From NCBI RefSeq assembly GCF_026410195.1, contig NZ_JAPMLM010000058.1, positions 186,001 through 250,000 on the forward strand: 64,000 nt of DNA, written 5' to 3'. Made by a program: the position numbers and the translations under genes. Of the stretch, positions 57,466-64,000 are shown in pieces. This DNA is from Xanthomarina sp. F2636L. GTDB taxonomy: Bacteria > Bacteroidota > Bacteroidia > Flavobacteriales > Flavobacteriaceae. Numbering within the stretch: the first letter of the stretch is position 1; the number at the start of each line of letters is the position of its first letter. The notes under the pieces are model-generated. The model ran no database searches and had not been told where the DNA came from. It was given only the letters and a program-made list of their open reading frames with translations.

Positions 57466-58239
57466 ATGAAAAAAATTACTTTTTCCCTATTAACTATTTT
57501 AATAACTTCCTTTTCTTATAGTCAAACATATACTACAGGACTTGTAGAATTTATCAATGATGGCGATTATTTTTACTCTGCTCAAATAGATGTTAACCCT
57601 TCACTTGTAACACTAACCCTTAATGGTCCCGATAATAAATATCTGGGCTTAGGATTTGATAATATGAGTATGACTTCCGGAGGAGATGTAGTTATATGGT
57701 TAAATGATGGCACATTTAAACTTACCGATAGATCCTTTTTAGGAATTGGCGCAGAACCCGTTTTAGATGCACAACAAGATTGGACTATAGTTTCCAATAC
57801 GACAACTGATGGTCAAAGGAATATTGTGGCTACAAGGTTGCCAGATACCGGAAATCCAGATGATTATGTTTTTTCTACTACCGCTACTTCTATAGATTTG
57901 GTTTGGTCTTTCGAAGCTAGTTCTACTTATTCATTAGGTTGGCATGGCGATACTAGAGGAGCTACAAGGCAGTCTTTTGTTTTAGGTACCTCTAATTTTA
58001 ATATGCCAGATTTAACTGTTTATCCTAATCCGGGAAAAACACGTTTAAATATTAACTTATCAGTTTTAGATAAAGCGACAACCATTGAAGTATATGACAT
58101 TCTTGGAAATAAAACATATGCTAATACCTTAAATTCTCTAACAAACTCTATTAATGTGTCTAATTGGCATTCTGGGGTATATTTAGTGAGAATTTCTCAA
58201 GATAACCAAGTAGTAACAAAACGTTTTGTAAAACAATAA
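57466..58239 (+). CDS. Secreted DOMON-like protein with T9SS sorting domain
   Basis: A 257-residue secreted protein with signal peptide (ends SFSYSQ). The beta-sandwich domain (about 20-170) has the pattern YLGLGFDNMSMTSGGDVVIWLNDG, then a long gap and YSLGWHGDTRGATRQSF, reminiscent of DOMON haem- or sugar-binding domains (moderately sure). The C-terminal type IX sorting domain (about 180-257) reads DLTVYPNPGKTRLNINL ... SGVYLVRI ... KRFVKQ. It is probably co-transcribed with the ankyrin gene. Confidence 0.87.
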   Translation: MKKITFSLLTILITSFSYSQTYTTGLVEFINDGDYFYSAQIDVNPSLVTLTLNGPDNKYLGLGFDNMSMTSGGDVVIWLNDGTFKLTDRSFLGIGAEPVLDAQQDWTIVSNTTTDGQRNIVATRLPDTGNPDDYVFSTTATSIDLVWSFEASSTYSLGWHGDTRGATRQSFVLGTSNFNMPDLTVYPNPGKTRLNINLSVLDKATTIEVYDILGNKTYANTLNSLTNSINVSNWHSGVYLVRISQDNQVVTKRFVKQ

Positions 58240-58262
58240 AATACTTTTTTAAACGTATATAT

Positions 58263-58292
58263 AAACTATCAATAAATTTGATGGTTTTTTGT
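58263..58292 (+). terminator. Terminator after the T9SS cargo gene
   Basis: AAACTATCAA (58263-58272) pairs with TTGATGGTTT (58278-58287), with one G-U pair, then TTTT. It lies between convergent stops. Confidence 0.65.
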
Positions 58293-58997
58293 TTATATCA
58301 ATTTAAGAAAGAGTATTCCAGTAAGAATGGCAATTCCAAAGCTAATTAGCGTTCCTATTAAAATATATTCGGTTAACTTTCTATGCTTACTTTCTTTTAA
58401 ATCTCCAAACCTAAATACCGACTTTGCTGTTATTAAAAATCCAACAGCTTCCCAATGATCTGAAATTATAAATATAAACACCAACAAGCGCTCTAACATC
58501 CCAATATATCTACCGGCATCTTTTAAAGACTCGTTGCCAGTTGTTAACTTATCAATGTTCCATTTGCTAAAAATAGTCATCATGATTATAGAAACAGGCT
58601 GGGTTAGAAAAAGCACACAGGTAAGAAGCAGTACATTTGTTTCCGTAAAAATGGTCGAGACTTCAAGACTGTTATCTGTAAAGAGGAAGTACGCCACAAA
58701 AATCATGATTATATGAAGCAATTGGTCTAAAAAGAACCATAAACGCTTTGTTTTTTTCTTCTGAAATTTTAGTTTTAAAACATCTATTATAAAGTGAGAA
58801 ATAGTGATAGTTAGAATAATTGGCCATAATGTAATATCCCAAAGCAAGAGTATTAATAAAACAAAATGAATGGCAATATGAATATATAAAGCGGGAGATT
58901 TTAGTTTTAATCTCTCTTTCTGTTTTATCGATTTTTTAGTCTGAAAAACAAAGTCGCCAATTAAATGTGCCAAAAAAAGCTTGATTAAAAGCATCAT
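58293..58997 (-). CDS. DUF3307 membrane protein paired with SatD
   Basis: Function unknown. A 234-residue inner-membrane protein with about six hydrophobic segments. The N-terminus LIKLFLAHLIGDFVFQTKKSI is the DUF3307 signature (an H-L-x-G-D-F motif inside the first helix). A second HFIIDVLKLKF (about 85-95) carries another His-Asp pair, possibly catalytic or metal-binding. It overlaps the SatD gene by 4 bases (ATGA-type coupling), so the two products probably work together. The SatD-DUF3307 pairing is recurrent in Bacteroidota and known in the sat locus type. Confidence 0.82.
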   Translation of the reverse strand: MMLLIKLFLAHLIGDFVFQTKKSIKQKERLKLKSPALYIHIAIHFVLLILLLWDITLWPIILTITISHFIIDVLKLKFQKKKTKRLWFFLDQLLHIIMIFVAYFLFTDNSLEVSTIFTETNVLLLTCVLFLTQPVSIIMMTIFSKWNIDKLTTGNESLKDAGRYIGMLERLLVFIFIISDHWEAVGFLITAKSVFRFGDLKESKHRKLTEYILIGTLISFGIAILTGILFLKLI

Positions 58998-59608
58998 AAT
59001 TCTTCTGTTATTTTTTGTTGATACATCCTGTTCAATTCTAGAATTTCGTCCAAATTAGCTCGTTTTTGTCTTCTGCTAATGGTATTCTGATTAATTCCTA
59101 AAAGTTTACCTAAGTCTTCTTGAATGGCATTAGGATTTTCTAAGCTTAATTTGACAATTTCGGCAGAATTCACCGTCCAGCTATCCATGCTTAATAAAGC
59201 TAATCTAAAATAAAGATTTAGCTCCTTGTTTAACTGTTTGTTAGAGGTTTTTATTTTGAGATTCTGTTTCTCTTTTTTTAAAGTTTCTAAAGTTTCCCCT
59301 GAATGTTGAAATGCTTCACCCTGAGATTCTGTAATCTGTTTTCCAGAATATGTCTTAGATCCAATGCCAATGGCAAGTCTAACATCTAACTCTTTAATAG
59401 TTTTTATGCTAGCTTTAAGATAGATGGCAGCTTCAAAACTTTTATTAATATCCTTTATTTCTATTTGAAAACTATCTCCTCTGTAAATTTCCCATAAAGA
59501 CTTGTCTGCTTCTATAGTGGTCAAGGCAGATTTTAAGGTCTGTAGCCAAAGCTCCGGATTGTTTACACTTCGAGACTTTATGATGTCTCCTGTTATTACA
59601 CTTGTCAT
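58994..59608 (-). CDS. SatD family protein with C-terminal HTH
   Basis: A 204-residue protein of the SatD family. The N-terminal part (about 1-115) begins SVITGDIIKSRS (Asp8) and has YRGDSFQ (Gly44-Asp45) and VRLAIGIGSK. This order of Asp, GD and R-x-x-GIG resembles the palm fold of class III cyclases and GGDEF enzymes (inference). The C-terminus (about 162-182) is a helix-turn-helix: IQEDLGKLLGINQNTISRRQKRA. Three 28-bp-spaced repeats upstream fit autoregulation by this HTH. It is coupled to the DUF3307 gene. Confidence 0.82.
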   Translation of the reverse strand: MTSVITGDIIKSRSVNNPELWLQTLKSALTTIEADKSLWEIYRGDSFQIEIKDINKSFEAAIYLKASIKTIKELDVRLAIGIGSKTYSGKQITESQGEAFQHSGETLETLKKEKQNLKIKTSNKQLNKELNLYFRLALLSMDSWTVNSAEIVKLSLENPNAIQEDLGKLLGINQNTISRRQKRANLDEILELNRMYQQKITEEL

Positions 59609-59634
59609 TTCTTCTAATTAATTGCATTCTAATA

Positions 59635-59711
59635 TTATCACCTTATTACATGATAATATTAATTATCACGTTATTAAAGGATATTGTCAAATATCACCTT
59701 ATTAAGTGATA
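59635..59711 (-). promoter_or_regulatory. Three operator repeats (28-bp period) upstream of satD
   Basis: TATCACCTTATTA (59636), TATCACGTTATTA (59664) and TATCACCTTATTA (59692) are direct repeats with exactly 28-bp spacing; the inverted half-site TGATAA/GTGATA occurs beside the first and third. On the minus strand they read TAATAAGGTGATA toward the satD start at 59608. A -7 box TATATTTG lies upstream at 59747-59740, so the repeats would be in the leader, where a bound protein can block transcription. Confidence 0.8.
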
Positions 59712-59797
59712 ATAAAGATAGTTCGTTTTATGGTAAATGCAAATATATTTTAAAGAAAATTAAATATTTGTTCTTAAAACCAAAGGAATAGAAGTGT

Positions 59798-60343
59798 TTA
59801 TAATTCCACTTTTACCTTATATGGTTCTAGTACATGCAGGTAATCTGTTGCTGAGAAAGTCTTTTGATTAAACTCTTTATGTCTTGAGTTTTTAGTTTTT
59901 ATAAGTTCAATAGCTTTTAAAAAACGTCTAATTTCAACTTGAGTCGTTAAAATTAATCCAGGAACTGAAACAGATTTATTATCATCACTCTTTGCCACCA
60001 TTGTAAAATACGATGAGTTGCAATGCTTAACTTTTCCTGTTATAATATTTTCCGAAATCACGCGAATTCCAACCACCATAGATGTGTTTCCAACGTAATT
60101 TATAGAAGCTTTCATAGTTAATAATTCTCCAATTTCTATAGGATTTAAAAAATCTACCGTATCTACAGAAGCTGTCACACAATAGGCTTCCGAATGTTTG
60201 GATGCGCAAGCAAAAGCAATTTGATCCATTAAATTAAGAAGATACCCTCCATGTATTTTTCCATTAAAATTGGAGTGGGAGGGTTTCATTAATTCAGAAA
60301 TGGAAATTCGGGAATATGCTGCTGGTTTAAAAGTATCTCTCAT
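59798..60343 (-). CDS. Acyl-CoA thioesterase (hotdog fold)
   Basis: This enzyme hydrolyses acyl-CoA to fatty acid and CoA. The 181-residue single-hotdog protein has NFNGKIHGGYLLNLMDQIAF (about 25-45) and ASVDTVDFLNPIEIGELLTMKASINYVGNTSM (about 63-95), the conserved core of the BACH/YciA group; the Asp near residue 41 is the usual catalytic residue. It precedes the satD promoter on the same strand and follows the small gene at 60344 directly (stop at 60344). Confidence 0.92.
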   Translation of the reverse strand: MRDTFKPAAYSRISISELMKPSHSNFNGKIHGGYLLNLMDQIAFACASKHSEAYCVTASVDTVDFLNPIEIGELLTMKASINYVGNTSMVVGIRVISENIITGKVKHCNSSYFTMVAKSDDNKSVSVPGLILTTQVEIRRFLKAIELIKTKNSRHKEFNQKTFSATDYLHVLEPYKVKVEL

Positions 60344-60712
60344 TTAAAAGCGTCTGTTATTACGTTCGGTATCTTCTTCAACTTTGGTTATAAAAAACTT
60401 TGTGTCTCCTAACCAAAATATCTTATTATAACGTTCAAAATAGTGAAGTTTTACGTATTTACCTTGATAATCCTTTAAATTTTGAATGACCTCCTTTTCT
60501 TTGTCTTGTACAGAGAACTCAAACAGTTGTCCTTCCGAAACTCCCTGGCTTATTTCTCCTTCCCAGGTTTTTATTATAACACCTTTGTTGCTAAACTTAA
60601 CTAATTCTCCGGCTCTAATTCCTTTACTATAGGTAGCAAAATAAATAAAGGCAGCATAAGCAGCTAAAACCAATATAAATACGACTAAAAATTTAATAAG
60701 AAATTTTTTCAT
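60344..60712 (-). CDS. Small membrane-anchored protein of unknown function
   Basis: A 122-residue protein with one N-terminal transmembrane helix (about 5-27) and a compact beta-rich outside domain. The domain has YSKGIRAGELVKFSNKGVIIKTWEGE (about 30-54) and FEFSVQDKEKEVIQNL, then YVKLHYFERYNKIFWLGDTKFFI. Relatives in Flavobacteria have carried the old label '6-phosphogluconate dehydrogenase', which nothing in this sequence supports. It directly precedes the thioesterase and follows rmuC by 15 bases, so it is in that transcript. Confidence 0.8.
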   Translation of the reverse strand: MKKFLIKFLVVFILVLAAYAAFIYFATYSKGIRAGELVKFSNKGVIIKTWEGEISQGVSEGQLFEFSVQDKEKEVIQNLKDYQGKYVKLHYFERYNKIFWLGDTKFFITKVEEDTERNNRRF

Positions 60713-60727
60713 AATGTTATCGTTTTT

Positions 60728-62056
60728 CTACTCTTCGTCATCTTGAATTTGAGCACGTTTTATTATAGCTTCCGGAAGTGATTTTTTTGCTTTAGCTCCC
60801 ATTTTTTTTAGTTTTTCAACACGGCCAATAATGTTTCCTCTTCCTTCAACCAATTTATTCATGGCTGCCGAATAATCCGTTTTTGCAGCATCAATTTTTT
60901 TGCCAACCCCGGTTAAATCAATTACCAGGCCTTCAAATTTATCATAAAGTGCCCCAGCTTGTTTGGCAATCTCTAAGGCATTTCTTTGTTGTTTTTCGTT
61001 ATTCCACATGGTATCAACAGTACGTAAAGTAGCTAATAAAGTGGCTGGAGTTACAATAACAATATTTTTCTCAAAAGCTTTATTGTAAAGCGTATTATCT
61101 TCGTTTATAGCCACAGCAAATGCAGGTTCAATAGGTATAAACATCAGGACGAAATCAGGAGATTCTATATCGTATAAATCCTCGTATTTCTTTTCAGAAA
61201 GCTGATCCACATGCCTCTTAATAGAGTTTACATGCGCCTTTAACCACAAAGCTCTTTCGTCATCTTCAGCATTTACCAGGCGTTCGTAATCTGTTAACGA
61301 TACTTTACTATCAATAATCATGCGCTTATTATCTGGCAAGTGTAAAACCACATCTGGAAGTACGCGAGAACCATCTTCGCGGGTAAAGCTTTGTTGTACA
61401 AAATACTCGCGATCTTTTTCTAAGCCTGATTTTTCAAGAACACGTTCTAGCACCAATTCTCCCCAATTTCCTTGCATTTTACTATCGCCTTTTAAAGCTC
61501 TGGTAAGGTTGGTGGCTTCTTTAGTCATTTGCTGATTTAAGTCTTTTAAGCCTAATAATTGCTCTTTTAAAGCAGAATGCATGCTAATGCTTTCCTTTTG
61601 AGTGTCTTCAACTTTCTTTTCAAAAACTTGAATTTTTTCTTGTAGTGGGTTTAATATTTGTTTGATATTTTCTTTATTCTGAAGTGTAAATTTTTCAGAT
61701 TTTTCATCTAAAATCTTTGTAGCTAGAAGTTCAAAATCTTTGCGTAATTGCTCTTGTTGGAGTGCAATTTCTTCATCGCGTTTTAAAAGTTGCTTCTCTA
61801 AATTTTCGTATTCGGTATTGCGTTTGGTTAATTCAGAATTTAATAAGTCTTTCTCGTTGCGAATGTCATTGCGTTCAACTTCAATCTTAGAAATTGTGGT
61901 TTTTAAATCGGTTATAGCTAGGTTTAATTGATTCTGACGTTCTTCGAGTGTGCTTTTTTCACCTTTAGTTTTAAGTTTTGTAAAAGCCATACCAAGATAG
62001 GCACCAATACCACCAGCAATAAGAATGGCTACAATGAGAATAAGGTTATCGGTCAT
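60728..62056 (-). CDS. rmuC: DNA recombination protein RmuC
   Basis: A membrane-anchored nuclease-like protein that limits inversions and rearrangements of DNA. The 442-residue protein has one N-terminal transmembrane helix (about 5-22) and a long coiled coil (about 30-190). The RmuC domain follows (about 195-400), with QGNWGELVLERVLEKSGL and PDVVLHLPDNKRMIIDSKVS, which carries the E/D-x-K nuclease-type motif. It begins 57 bases after the reverse transcriptase stop on the same strand. Confidence 0.95.
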   Translation of the reverse strand: MTDNLILIVAILIAGGIGAYLGMAFTKLKTKGEKSTLEERQNQLNLAITDLKTTISKIEVERNDIRNEKDLLNSELTKRNTEYENLEKQLLKRDEEIALQQEQLRKDFELLATKILDEKSEKFTLQNKENIKQILNPLQEKIQVFEKKVEDTQKESISMHSALKEQLLGLKDLNQQMTKEATNLTRALKGDSKMQGNWGELVLERVLEKSGLEKDREYFVQQSFTREDGSRVLPDVVLHLPDNKRMIIDSKVSLTDYERLVNAEDDERALWLKAHVNSIKRHVDQLSEKKYEDLYDIESPDFVLMFIPIEPAFAVAINEDNTLYNKAFEKNIVIVTPATLLATLRTVDTMWNNEKQQRNALEIAKQAGALYDKFEGLVIDLTGVGKKIDAAKTDYSAAMNKLVEGRGNIIGRVEKLKKMGAKAKKSLPEAIIKRAQIQDDEE

Positions 62057-62113
62057 AATTTTTTATATGTATTAGTGTAAAAGTAAGAAATTATAAGAAC
62101 TATAATTTTTTGA

Positions 62114-63625
62114 TTATAAATCTTTTTTAACATTTGAAAAATCGTACTTCTTCATTGTATTTTGAAGTATTTTCCAATGATTGCGTAATTGTCTTTTTAT
62201 TTCTGGAGCCTCCATTTCATCTGAAGCCCTATAAGCATATCTTAAATAATTACCTCTAAATTTTCTTTCAAAATATTTGGTCTTTGCTTTTCTATTAATA
62301 AAAACTGTTCTTTTTGTAGGGAGCATTCTTGATTTCTCTCCTTTATAACTAAAAAGTCTGTATAACTTTCTTTTAAAAATTGGAGCCTCATCTAAAAGAT
62401 GTTTTTCTTTTATTGTTTCAACTCTTTTATGTTTTCGTTTAACCGTTTGCTTCATTTCTCTATAAAACTTAGCAAGGTTTTTAGATTTAATTAAAGTTTG
62501 ATAACCGTAAAATTCAAAGCCCAAATAGTTTAAAGGAATGTTCTCTTTTAAACTTCTGTCATTTTCGATTTTATAGCATTGTAGCTTTCTTTTGTTGAAC
62601 TTAAATAATGTTCTTTCAGTTTTTTCTATTGATACTTTTAGTTTATTTTCAATAATCTCTTTTTCAACAAAATCTTCCACTAGTTTAATTTGACTTTCAT
62701 CACATAGCATTACTATATCATCAGAATATCTTCTATAAAAAACGTTGTATTTTTGCACTAATTCTTTAACAACTGCTTTATCAAAATCTAGCATGTAGAT
62801 ATTAGCCAAAATAGCACTAATAGGTAGACCTTGTGGAATTCCCATTAACATACCTGATTCATCTTTCTTTTGATTTTTATGAATAATTATGTCAGAGTCA
62901 ATTAAATCTTTTATACTATTAAAAAACGTGTATTTACCTTCTTTTTTTAGTTGAGATAATTCTTTTTCATCGAAATGACAATTTTTAGTTTTCAGATCTT
63001 TCAGTCTTACGTAAGAAAATCTTGTAGTTGCTTTAAATAGATTAAAATGATCTTTTGGTAAGGTTTTGTTACCTAATACTTTTGCCCACGCTAATTTTAG
63101 TTTTTTATGATTAAGACTAGGAAAGAAGTTTTCAATGTCTAAAACTAATGCAACACAATTTTCCCTTCGTTTTATTTCATTAAATACCTCTTTAGCAAAA
63201 TGAACATTGTTTTTAAATTTTAGCTTATCATCAGTTTCAATTTGTCTGTAAGCAGTTATAGAGTTAGAAAGCACAGAGTTTTGTTGTAAGTGTGCTTCGT
63301 ATTGAGGTGTAATAACTTGCTGTGTGTAATAAGAGTAAATATGAGCGTCTATATGTGTTGCATAGAGTATTTCTCTAATTTTTGTATTTGAGACGACCTT
63401 TCCATTTTTATTTTTTTTATGTGATCGCCTTTCGAAACCATTAAAGTCAGATAATTTATAGCGTCTTTGTTTTATTTCTTTAAAAATTAATGGAGAAAAG
63501 GAATGCTGGGAAATTTTTTTTTGATTGGCAACATAGCGTTTTACATTTTTTCTAATAGCCATTGGTGTCTTATTAGTAAAATGGGGATAACCTCTGTCTT
63601 TAAACCAATCTTTTTGTTTTCTCAT
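62114..63625 (-). CDS. Stand-alone reverse transcriptase of the unknown-group/DRT type
   Basis: A 503-residue RNA-directed DNA polymerase. Motif A is VALVLDIENFFPSL (Asp163); motif B is MGIPQGLPISAILANIYMLD (about 261-280); motif C is YRRYSDDIVML (Asp302, Asp303); a later LNYLGFEFYG is motif D/E-like. The QGLPIS wording is that of unknown-group, Abi and defence-associated RTs. Group II introns usually show QGG..SP and retrons QGaptSP. There is no maturase or endonuclease domain; a basic C-terminal region (about 380-503, GNYLRYAYRASDEM) replaces it. The N-terminus WFKDRGYPHF is distinctive. The upstream DNA folds into several hairpins. DRT2-like is the best guess, but the subgroup is not proven. 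Confidence 0.87.
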   Translation of the reverse strand: MRKQKDWFKDRGYPHFTNKTPMAIRKNVKRYVANQKKISQHSFSPLIFKEIKQRRYKLSDFNGFERRSHKKNKNGKVVSNTKIREILYATHIDAHIYSYYTQQVITPQYEAHLQQNSVLSNSITAYRQIETDDKLKFKNNVHFAKEVFNEIKRRENCVALVLDIENFFPSLNHKKLKLAWAKVLGNKTLPKDHFNLFKATTRFSYVRLKDLKTKNCHFDEKELSQLKKEGKYTFFNSIKDLIDSDIIIHKNQKKDESGMLMGIPQGLPISAILANIYMLDFDKAVVKELVQKYNVFYRRYSDDIVMLCDESQIKLVEDFVEKEIIENKLKVSIEKTERTLFKFNKRKLQCYKIENDRSLKENIPLNYLGFEFYGYQTLIKSKNLAKFYREMKQTVKRKHKRVETIKEKHLLDEAPIFKRKLYRLFSYKGEKSRMLPTKRTVFINRKAKTKYFERKFRGNYLRYAYRASDEMEAPEIKRQLRNHWKILQNTMKKYDFSNVKKDL

Positions 63626-63907
63626 ATTAAAATAAAAGTAAGAGAAGTTCTCGCACGTATTTATAACAGAATAAAACTTACACCTTAATAAAGGATTGAA
63701 CCATTAGCCAAATTCTCGACTCACGCTGACCTTGTACGTACCTTTGCAAATAGATGCACAGGTGTTAAATATAATCCTAATAGCAATACAAATGATTGAA
63801 ATAATCAAATACTTCTGGGTGAAGTCCCTAAAGCTTTATAAATTACTTGAATTAATACTTATGTTTCTTTCAATAAACACATATTTATCGATAAATGTTT
63901 GTTTATT
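63626..63907 (-). ncRNA. Putative structured ncRNA upstream of the reverse transcriptase
   Basis: The gene-free DNA in front of the RT contains a series of hairpins read on the minus strand. There is an 18-bp dyad with two mismatches (63872-63907, centre ATCGAT) and ACTTC/GAAGT (63811-63825). TGATT/AATCA (63793-63807) and ACC..TGCA/TGCA..GGT (63740-63763) follow, then CCTT/AAGG (63683-63694). No ribosomal start or real ORF lies on this strand. DRT2 and DRT9 systems have their template ncRNA exactly here. No convincing -7 box was found, so the ends are guesses; the remaining bases to 64000 hold only AT-rich DNA with two weak palindromes (63949-63966, 63980-63995). Confidence 0.4.
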
Positions 63908-64000
63908 TAAAGAAATTTACAACTTTCCTAATCGCCATATTTATTATCCCTTTTAATTAAAAAAGGTCGGATTAAGTGATTGATTTAAAAATCAATACAG

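What the first reader, a model, noticed from the sequence alone, without database searches (positions are those of the whole stretch)
62114..63907. Stand-alone defence-type reverse transcriptase with a hairpin-rich upstream region
Seen: a 503-residue RT with IPQGLPISAILAN and YSDD, without intron maturase or retron motifs, preceded by about 280 gene-free bases with at least five stem-loops, including an 18-bp dyad. Known: DRT2 and DRT9 RTs copy a ncRNA encoded just upstream and give phage defence. Inference: this locus is such a system, maybe a new subtype, since the YSDD motif and the 120-residue basic C-terminus do not let me place it in a named group.
Basis: partly seen in the sequence, partly recalled or inferred. 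Interest (0 to 1): 0.8.

Follow-up and report, generated by a model that had tools for sequence, protein, structure and literature searches.

The report
DRT2 phage-defence enzyme, hidden gene
A bacterium of the Flavobacteriaceae carries a phage-defence enzyme whose neighbouring RNA seems to hold a split gene and promoter that become whole only when the enzyme copies the RNA round and round into DNA; many distant relatives show the same, with a promoter that fits their host.

Summary
The RT (62114-63625, minus) is a DRT2 (UG2) enzyme of a Flavobacteriaceae clade, ~33% identical to KpnDRT2. Upstream lies a structured ncRNA (51 named pairs, strong covariation) that begins ~48 bases past the window end. 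Its hypervariable centre (63738-63920, 183 nt) sits between matching GTA triplets. Antisense and joined end to end, it has no stop codon and forms TTTG-N20-TACCTTTG, a consensus Bacteroidota promoter: a hidden 'neo' gene. In 34 relatives, 31 units are divisible by three and endless (0.44 expected). A scan of all column pairs finds the same in two further, mostly Bacteroidota, DRT2 clades (33/33 and 8/10 rows) and, in eight Kpn-type controls, ends that are mostly ACA. Junction promoters fit the host: Bacteroidota type in clade II, more weakly in I and III; sigma70 in the controls and in a Psychrobacter with a Bacteroidota-type RT (12/12). The RT is not stand-alone: a YodC-like gene accompanies it in 35 of 35 clade loci (one truncated). 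cDNA, Neo and defence are inferred from KpnDRT2, not measured; three of 34 units break the rule. The DRT2 preprint called Neo annotation of divergent clades 'more challenging'. New variant of a known kind.

The parts
62114..63625 (-). DRT2-family (UG2) reverse transcriptase, 503 aa
   Evidence: PADLOC Drt2 PDLC03757 E 2e-136; NCBIfam Drt2 361.8 bits, below its cut-off of 390; PDB 9c0i/9lje E ~1e-55; tree
63636..64000 (-). DRT2 ncRNA (5' handle, template, 3' scaffold); continues to about window-equivalent 64048, past the window end; exact ends inferred
   Evidence: alignment A3 and pair counts
63738..63920 (-). template unit, 183 nt, from GTA-1 (included) to GTA-2 (excluded)
63918..63920 (-). 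GTA-1, 5' end motif of the template (role of ACA-1 in KpnDRT2, inferred)
63735..63737 (-). GTA-2, 3' end motif (role of ACA-2 in KpnDRT2, inferred)
63738..63920 (+). neo proto-gene: 61-codon frame, open across the joined repeat (VPLQIDAQVLNIILIAIQMIEIIKYFWVKSLKLYKLLELILMFLSINTYLSINVCLFKEIY); first in-frame ATG at 63792
63898..63901 (+). -33 box TTTG of the junction promoter (supplied by the preceding repeat)
63739..63746 (+). -7 box TACCTTTG of the junction promoter (supplied by the next repeat), N20 from TTTG
63927..63976 (-). 5' handle: basal stem CTTAATC/GATTAGG enclosing the CCTTTT/AAAAGG hairpin; an upstream hairpin lies at about 63978-63998
   Evidence: helices 2-4
63636..63737 (-). 3' scaffold with helices 5-7 and the 3' strand of the closing stem (63636-63651); the 5' strand is at window-equivalent 64034-64048. 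Helix 7 is weak (60.7% of cells paired)
62061..64000 (.). window part of the inserted cassette (window-equivalent about 62061-64896); missing in a ~96% identical relative

Best explanation
This is a Flavobacteriaceae variant of the DRT2 phage-defence system. The RT binds the ncRNA encoded just upstream and copies its 183-nt template; when the growing cDNA end (complement of GTA-1) reaches the template's 5' end it melts and re-pairs with GTA-2, so copying goes round repeatedly (rolling-circle reverse transcription). In the concatenated, double-stranded product each repeat junction sets a TTTG box from one repeat 20 bp before a TACCTTTG box of the next, making a Bacteroidota housekeeping promoter, followed by a stop-less frame (neo, 61 codons per repeat). 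Its hydrophobic repeat protein would arrest the infected cell. Shown here by sequence: RT family, covarying RNA, matching ends, length divisible by three, endless frame, junction promoter, and their conservation. Inferred from KpnDRT2: RT-RNA binding, the cDNA, phage triggering, second-strand synthesis, Neo translation and toxicity. A YodC-like protein gene, usually divergent, is a constant third part of unknown role, perhaps regulating the RT-RNA complex or Neo.
For: Family. RNA: 51 pairs, 165 two-sided changes against 54.5 shuffled. Frame: 31 of 34 units divisible by three and endless antisense, 2 of 34 endless sense, 0.44 expected; shifting the 3' boundary by 1, 2 or 4 gives 0-2 of 34. Boundaries: of 35,492 column pairs the GTA pair has the most identical ends (26 of 34) and is also endless in 31 of 34. 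Other clades: clade II 32 of 33 identical ends (permuted mean 15.1, max 24), 33 of 33 endless (3.15 expected); clade III 9 of 10 and 8 of 10 rows (0.35 expected), two of the ten rows being one contig. Positive control: the same kind of scan on 8 Kpn-type loci returns mostly ACA ends, units of 99-129 nt, 8 of 8 endless. Promoter: window 10/10, 0 of 200 shuffles; clade II 28 of 33 at 8/10 or better against 0 of 33 in linear context and 2.84 expected; Kpn-type 8 of 8 sigma70 at 10/12 or better; Psychrobacter L029 sigma70 12/12, 0 of 300 shuffles.
Against: No RNA, cDNA or phage data. In clade I the junction promoter is strong in few members (8/10 or better in 10 of 34; 9/10 or better in 4 of 34), and part of the excess is also there in linear context (4 of 34). 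Clade II also scores somewhat for sigma70 (6 of 33 at 10/12 or better; 1.8% of shuffles do), so promoter type is not wholly exclusive. Three of 34 units are not divisible by three (L003, L004, L020), clade III has L034 (167 nt), and L022 has lost the RNA. End triplets differ in 8 of 34, and the match of 26 is within the permutation range (mean 21.6, max 27), because GTA dominates. pN/pS in neo is 0.34-1.24 over 20 pairs, 0.90 and 1.16 for the window's two, so amino-acid constraint is weak. Counts are sequences, not independent events. NCBIfam's Drt2 cut-off is not reached. The N19-20 spacing was set after seeing the window; clade II is the independent test.
Confidence: 0.86

Rival explanations
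1. The antisense frame is an ordinary small protein gene read from the linear chromosome (a 74-codon ORF, 63732-63956 plus), and multiples of three simply reflect that.
For: A linear ORF exists, and long antisense frames exist linearly in the relatives too.
Against: Relative to the end motifs the open frame is 0, 1 or 2 in different relatives, so the conserved 3' flank is entered in all three phases and offers no shared linear start. The distance between the end motifs is itself divisible by three in most rows of all four sets (31 of 34, 33 of 33, 9 of 10, 8 of 8). A promoter forms at the joined ends but not in linear context in clade II: 28 of 33 against 0 of 33.
Confidence: 0.06
2. The ncRNA is copied but the cDNA acts as DNA (as in DRT9), and the open frame is a by-product of composition.
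For: Weak amino-acid constraint; DRT9 is described as close to DRT2 (PMC12483538, passages).
Against: 0.44 endless frames expected against 31 of 34; junction promoters that match the host's sigma factor in clade II, the Kpn-type set and L029.
Confidence: 0.05
3. In this clade the YodC-like partner is the real effector and the RT-RNA part has become a sensor or regulator of it; neo is a relic.
For: The partner is strictly linked (35 of 35 loci, one truncated; same 13 of 397 genomes); clade I junction promoters are weaker than those of clade II.
Against: Neo frames are kept endless in 31 of 34 despite rapid divergence; the Kpn system as described in the passages read is RT plus ncRNA (PMC11100668, PMC12039810).
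Confidence: 0.1

Closest known systems
KpnDRT2 (Klebsiella pneumoniae DRT2; PDB 9c0i, 9lje; PMC11100668, PMC12039810)
   Same: RT family, ncRNA just upstream, template between short motifs, unit divisible by three, endless antisense frame, promoter made only at the repeat junction.
   Different: About 33% RT identity over 495 residues; YSDD not YCDD; 503 not 425 aa; GTA not ACA ends; 183- not 120-nt unit; Bacteroidota not sigma70 promoter; a YodC-like partner and a long stem closing the RNA. KpnDRT2's own DNA was not fetched; its RNA is known to me from the papers only.
PADLOC RTasYodC (RT-associated YodC-like protein, PDLC03806)
   Same: The partner gene matches this model at 8.6e-91, so the association had been catalogued.
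   Different: A paper search for YodC with reverse transcriptase listed 9 papers, none about this by title. Here the gene is tied to one DRT2 clade and was not found in the DNA held around 61 other RT loci.
DRT9 (UG28)
   Same: A DRT that copies an upstream ncRNA repeatedly (PMC12483538, passages).
   Different: Makes poly-dA, argued to have no coding role (PMC12483538, passages); no Drt9 model is among the 25 of 36 PADLOC matches shown for this RT.

Membership tests
DRT2 (UG2) | RT belongs to the Drt2 family | tested here: met
   PADLOC Drt2 E 2e-136 over 3-494; PDB KpnDRT2 1.6e-55 to 3.4e-53
DRT2 (UG2) | Passes NCBIfam Drt2 equivalog cut-off | tested here: inconclusive
   361.8 bits against a cut-off of 390: below the line, yet by far the best of 4 families. 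That the model is tuned to the Kpn side is my inference.
DRT2 (UG2) | Structured ncRNA immediately upstream of the RT | tested here: met
DRT2 (UG2) | Template between two short identical motifs | tested here: met
   GTA/GTA in the window; 26 of 34 relatives identical. The letters ACA are not met here; they vary in the Kpn-type controls too (ACA/ACA in 4 of 8).
DRT2 (UG2) | Unit divisible by three, stop-less antisense frame across the junction | tested here: met
   183 nt, 0 stops in one frame; 31 of 34 relatives
DRT2 (UG2) | Promoter reconstituted at the repeat junction | tested here: met
   window TTTG-N20-TACCTTTG, 10/10, linear order 8/10; in form only, activity untested
DRT2 (UG2) | Rolling-circle cDNA, phage-induced second strand, toxic Neo, phage defence | not testable with these tools
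   needs experiments
Group II intron RT/maturase | Passes the intron maturase model | tested here: not met
   TIGR04416 56.9 bits against a cut-off of 300
Retron | Passes a retron RT model | tested here: not met
   NF038233 (St85 family) 59.3 bits against a cut-off of 235; the only retron model listed
DRT9 (UG28) | Uridine-rich template giving poly-dA | not tested
   No Drt9 model among the 25 of 36 PADLOC matches shown; the template was not scored for U tracts

The most novel reading that the evidence does not exclude
Neo synthesis is general to DRT2, not limited to KpnDRT2-like systems: each DRT2 clade keeps an endless frame but re-invents the end motif (ACA, GTA, ATA/ATT) and fits the junction promoter to its host's sigma factor, with a natural swap to a perfect sigma70 promoter when a Bacteroidota-type system moved into Psychrobacter. 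In Flavobacteriaceae the system has become three-part, with an obligate YodC-like protein that controls the RT-RNA complex or protects against Neo.
Probability: 0.55. Interest if true: 0.78.

Novelty: new variant of a known kind. Interest (0 to 1): 0.66.

Why it matters
The DRT2 preprint reported that Neo annotation in divergent DRT2 clades was 'more challenging' and raised alternative mechanisms (PMC11100668, section 10). The simple scan used here finds neo frames in three mostly Bacteroidota clades and host-matched junction promoters, clearest in clade II, so the same mechanism probably covers them. It gives candidate template ends, promoter boxes and peptides to test in Bacteroidota, a natural experiment on promoter adaptation, and a strictly linked partner protein of unknown function. 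It also offers a way to find hidden genes that exist only after rolling-circle copying.

Tried and rejected
Minimum free energy of the upstream region alone: not significant (z -0.98). Rfam: no match up to E 1 in 58000-64000. Strong protein-level selection on neo: not found, pN/pS 0.34-1.24 in the 20 pairs with 45% or more identity. RNAalifold on the 3' part alone recovered one hairpin, so I named helices by inspection and tested them; because they were drawn from one sequence, slid controls are expected to be lower for that reason too. A possible pseudoknot between the 3' linker and GAACTT was looked at by eye and is not claimed. Fold comparison of the partner family (AlphaFold model of the L006 relative, pLDDT 85.1): no match at E <= 0.001; several weak matches are small beta-barrel ribosomal proteins, so SH3-like is only a lead. 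DUF2158 (YodC) in Pfam is below cut-off (E 0.068). A plain phage origin: the phage and viral collections gave 5 records, at most 38% identity.

Rows dropped: six duplicate loci (L082-L086, L100) and L022 (no RNA) before the 34-sequence tests. Alignment A3 used 31 of the 34 (L004, L016, L020 left out); A1 30 and A2 31 of 34. The search for related loci kept 80 of 110 confirmed relatives. The tree holds 33 of the 35 clade I loci (two are partial). The Kpn-type control used 8 of the 15 loci listed (48% or more identity to KpnDRT2); its ranking was by the sum of identical ends and endless frames and its length limits were 70-200 nt, not 90-260 as, and I matched it to the published ACA sites by letters and unit length, not by KpnDRT2's own DNA. 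In one search endless frames were counted only for pairs with at least 60% of rows divisible by three. The cluster first called clade IV (9 rows) gave no clear pair and is not used as evidence. Promoter windows differ: -7 box within -8 to +4 of the junction, about -14 to +12, -20 to +15 for L029.

Papers: PMC11100668 outline, passages and section 10; PMC12039810 outline, passages and section 9 part 1; PMC12483538, PMC12632851, PMC12596737, PMC8934634, PMC6847099 and PMC9723704 passages only; others as search listings. The final Science version of Tang et al. is not held and no supplements were read, so Bacteroidota Neo predictions may exist there. 'Not found in print' rests. The N19-20 promoter spacing comes from no paper read here.

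Full report
WHAT IS THERE. The reading frame at 62114-63625 (minus) encodes a 503-residue reverse transcriptase with IPQGLPISAILAN and YSDD. Its best PADLOC model is Drt2 (E 2e-136, residues 3-494). NCBIfam's Drt2 model is also best but below its cut-off (361.8 of 390 bits), and the intron and retron models listed score far below theirs. The nearest solved structures are KpnDRT2 (1.6e-55 to 3.4e-53). The genome holds one match. A scan of genome contigs returned 80 loci (of 110 confirmed) and genome searches added more. A maximum-likelihood tree of 93 rows puts the window's RT in a clade whose named members are all Flavobacteriaceae (clade I, 33 rows, support 100). Two other mostly Bacteroidota clades (II, 33 rows, support 100; III, 10 rows, support 88) lie beside it, and KpnDRT2 lies in a separate group with Pseudomonadota, Verrucomicrobiota and others. 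YSDD is the form of these clades (31 of 35, 33 of 33, 10 of 10 rows) and YCDD that of the Kpn-side cluster (9 of 9 rows).

THE RNA. Upstream regions of clade I align at both ends around a hypervariable centre. A conserved -7-like box (TATATTTAC in the window's genome) lies at window-equivalent 64053-64061, and the RNA runs, by inference, from about 64048 to 63636, so its first 48 or so bases are outside the window. On 31 sequences, 51 named pairs in seven helices are formed in 90.9% of cells (79.4% in shuffles), with 165 two-sided changes (54.5 in shuffles, 22-65 when slid) and 0 of 500 shuffles reaching any of the five measures; helix 7 is weak at 60.7%. One helix pairs the very 5' end with the 3' end next to the RT gene, which could mark the processed RNA (inference). 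No Rfam family matches. Folding energy alone is unremarkable.

THE HIDDEN GENE. The centre is bounded by GTA on both sides in the window. Cut from GTA-1 to before GTA-2 (63738-63920) it is 183 nt long, and its antisense has one frame with no stop codon when repeats are joined. Over 34 distinct relatives, the window included, 31 units are divisible by three (171 to 192 nt) and the same 31 are endless. The sense strand gives 2 of 34, dinucleotide shuffles predict 0.44, and moving one boundary by 1, 2 or 4 bases gives 0-2 of 34. To avoid choosing the boundary by eye, I scored all 35,492 column pairs: the GTA pair had the most identical end triplets (26 of 34) and was also endless in 31 of 34; the next five pairs by identity (22-23 of 34) had 3 to 28 rows divisible by three and at most 9 endless where counted. 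L027 (GTC/GTC) and L087 (GTT/GTT) change both ends together, although over all 34 the match is only modestly above permutation (26 against a mean of 21.6, maximum 27).

THE SAME SCAN ELSEWHERE. In clade II (33 rows, RT 29-37% identical to the window's) the best of 31,804 pairs has identical ends in 32 of 33 (ATA/ATA 17, ATT/ATT 14, TTT/TTT 1; permuted mean 15.1, maximum 24) and is endless in 33 of 33 (shuffles 3.15, sense strand 9). In clade III (10 rows, one a duplicate) it is 9 of 10 and 8 of 10 (shuffles 0.35). As a positive control I took 8 Kpn-type loci at 48% or more identity to KpnDRT2: the top pair has ends ACA/ACA in 4 of 8 and identical in 6 of 8, units of 99-129 nt, and 8 of 8 endless, against 1.42 expected. 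The published KpnDRT2 unit is 120 nt between ACA motifs, with 111-, 117- and 129-nt units in homologues (PMC12039810, passages).

THE PROMOTER. Bacteroidota use TTTG/TAnnTTTG (PMC6847099, passages; PMC9723704 for the -7 box, passages); the N19-20 spacing is my choice after seeing the window. Joining repeats of the window places TTTG (63898-63901) 20 bp before TACCTTTG (63739-63746): 10 of 10 consensus positions, 0 of 200 shuffles, against 8 in the linear order. In clade I as a whole the signal is weaker: 8/10 or better in 10 of 34, against 4 linear and 1.27 expected; set mean 7.0 against 6.32 linear and 5.81 shuffled. In clade II it is striking: 28 of 33 at 8/10 or better against 0 of 33 linear and 2.84 expected. 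In clade III without L029 the mean is 8.1 against 6.5 shuffled (9 rows). The Kpn-type controls show sigma70 promoters instead (8 of 8 at 10/12 or better; none at 9/10 for the Bacteroidota type). Clade II also reaches 10/12 for sigma70 in 6 of 33 (1.8% of shuffles do), clade I in 2 of 34 (3.2%), so the split is strong but not complete. L029 is a Psychrobacter (Gammaproteobacteria) carrying a clade III RT. Multiple alignment had misplaced its ends; a free search of its upstream region (18 candidate units) found a 108-nt endless unit with ATAC at both ends whose junction reads TTGACA-N17-TATAAT, 12 of 12, reached in 0 of 300 shuffled sequences. Its tree branch is long and the clade's support is 88.

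NOT STAND-ALONE. A 252-residue gene at window-equivalent 64098-64856 points away from the RT. Relatives lie upstream of the RT in all 41 clade I rows (35 distinct loci; the L022 copy is truncated; orientation flipped in L090-L093), and none was found at E 1e-3 in the DNA held around the 61 other RT loci. Among 397 family genomes the gene occurs in 13 (E 1e-10), the same 13 that have a clade I RT. It matches PADLOC's RTasYodC (8.6e-91), so the association was catalogued; the one paper search on it listed nothing relevant by title. The predicted fold of a relative is mostly strands (pLDDT 85.1) with no confident match.

A COMPACT INSERTION. In the window's genome rmuC and an ABC-transporter gene are 2.8 kb apart. 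In 5 of the 7 other genomes of the genus they are 64-133 bp apart, and in two the gap is 1.9 and 4.0 kb and holds other frames. Against a ~96% identical relative the extra DNA is L103 2062-4897 (window-equivalent 62061-64896) and contains RT, RNA and partner; 102 unaligned bases stand there in the relative. rmuC also lies in the DNA held around 22 of 35 clade I loci, so the site is old or preferred.

HOW IT WORKS. By analogy with KpnDRT2 (PMC11100668, PMC12039810) I infer rolling-circle copying between GTA-1 and GTA-2, second-strand synthesis on infection, transcription from the junction promoter, and a toxic repeat protein. None of these was measured. Neo's amino-acid sequence is weakly constrained (pN/pS 0.34-1.24). 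Exceptions count against a perfect rule: L003 and L004 (181 nt), L020 (172 nt), L034 (167 nt, clade III), and L022, where the RNA and the start of the partner gene are gone while the RT stays open.

NOVELTY. DRT2, its ncRNA and Neo are known. What I have not found in print is the Neo frame and host-type junction promoter in Bacteroidota DRT2; the preprint says annotation of divergent clades was 'more challenging'. I could not read its supplement or final version. I therefore call it a new variant of a known kind.

Noticed in passing
window-equivalent 62061-64896; L124: The DRT2 cassette is a ~2.84-kb insertion between rmuC and an ABC-transporter ATPase gene; five genus relatives have a short empty site and two have other frames there (a hotspot?).
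   Followed up: partly
L022:4900-5040: In a Tenacibaculum relative the ncRNA and the first ~67 residues of the partner gene are missing, while the RT frame is still open.
   Followed up: partly
L029 upstream of 5001: Psychrobacter with a Bacteroidota-type DRT2 whose repeat junction forms a perfect sigma70 promoter; a natural promoter swap.
   Followed up: yes
L078 and L091: A clade II and a clade I DRT2 appear to sit on one 356,116-base contig, i.e. two different DRT2 systems in one genome (inferred from equal contig length).
   Followed up: no
L125, L126: Other cargo (a 575-aa frame; several shorter ones) occupies the same rmuC/ABC site in two genus relatives; could be other defence genes.
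   Followed up: no
phage record CP103976.1 53340-54650; L101: DRT2-like RTs in a Clostridioides phage record and in a viral contig, so some DRT2 relatives may be phage-borne.
   Followed up: no
window 63864-63915 and template of relatives: Many clade I template hairpins end in a self-complementary loop core (ATCGAT, AACGTT, ATTAAT; seen by eye); meaning unknown.
   Followed up: no
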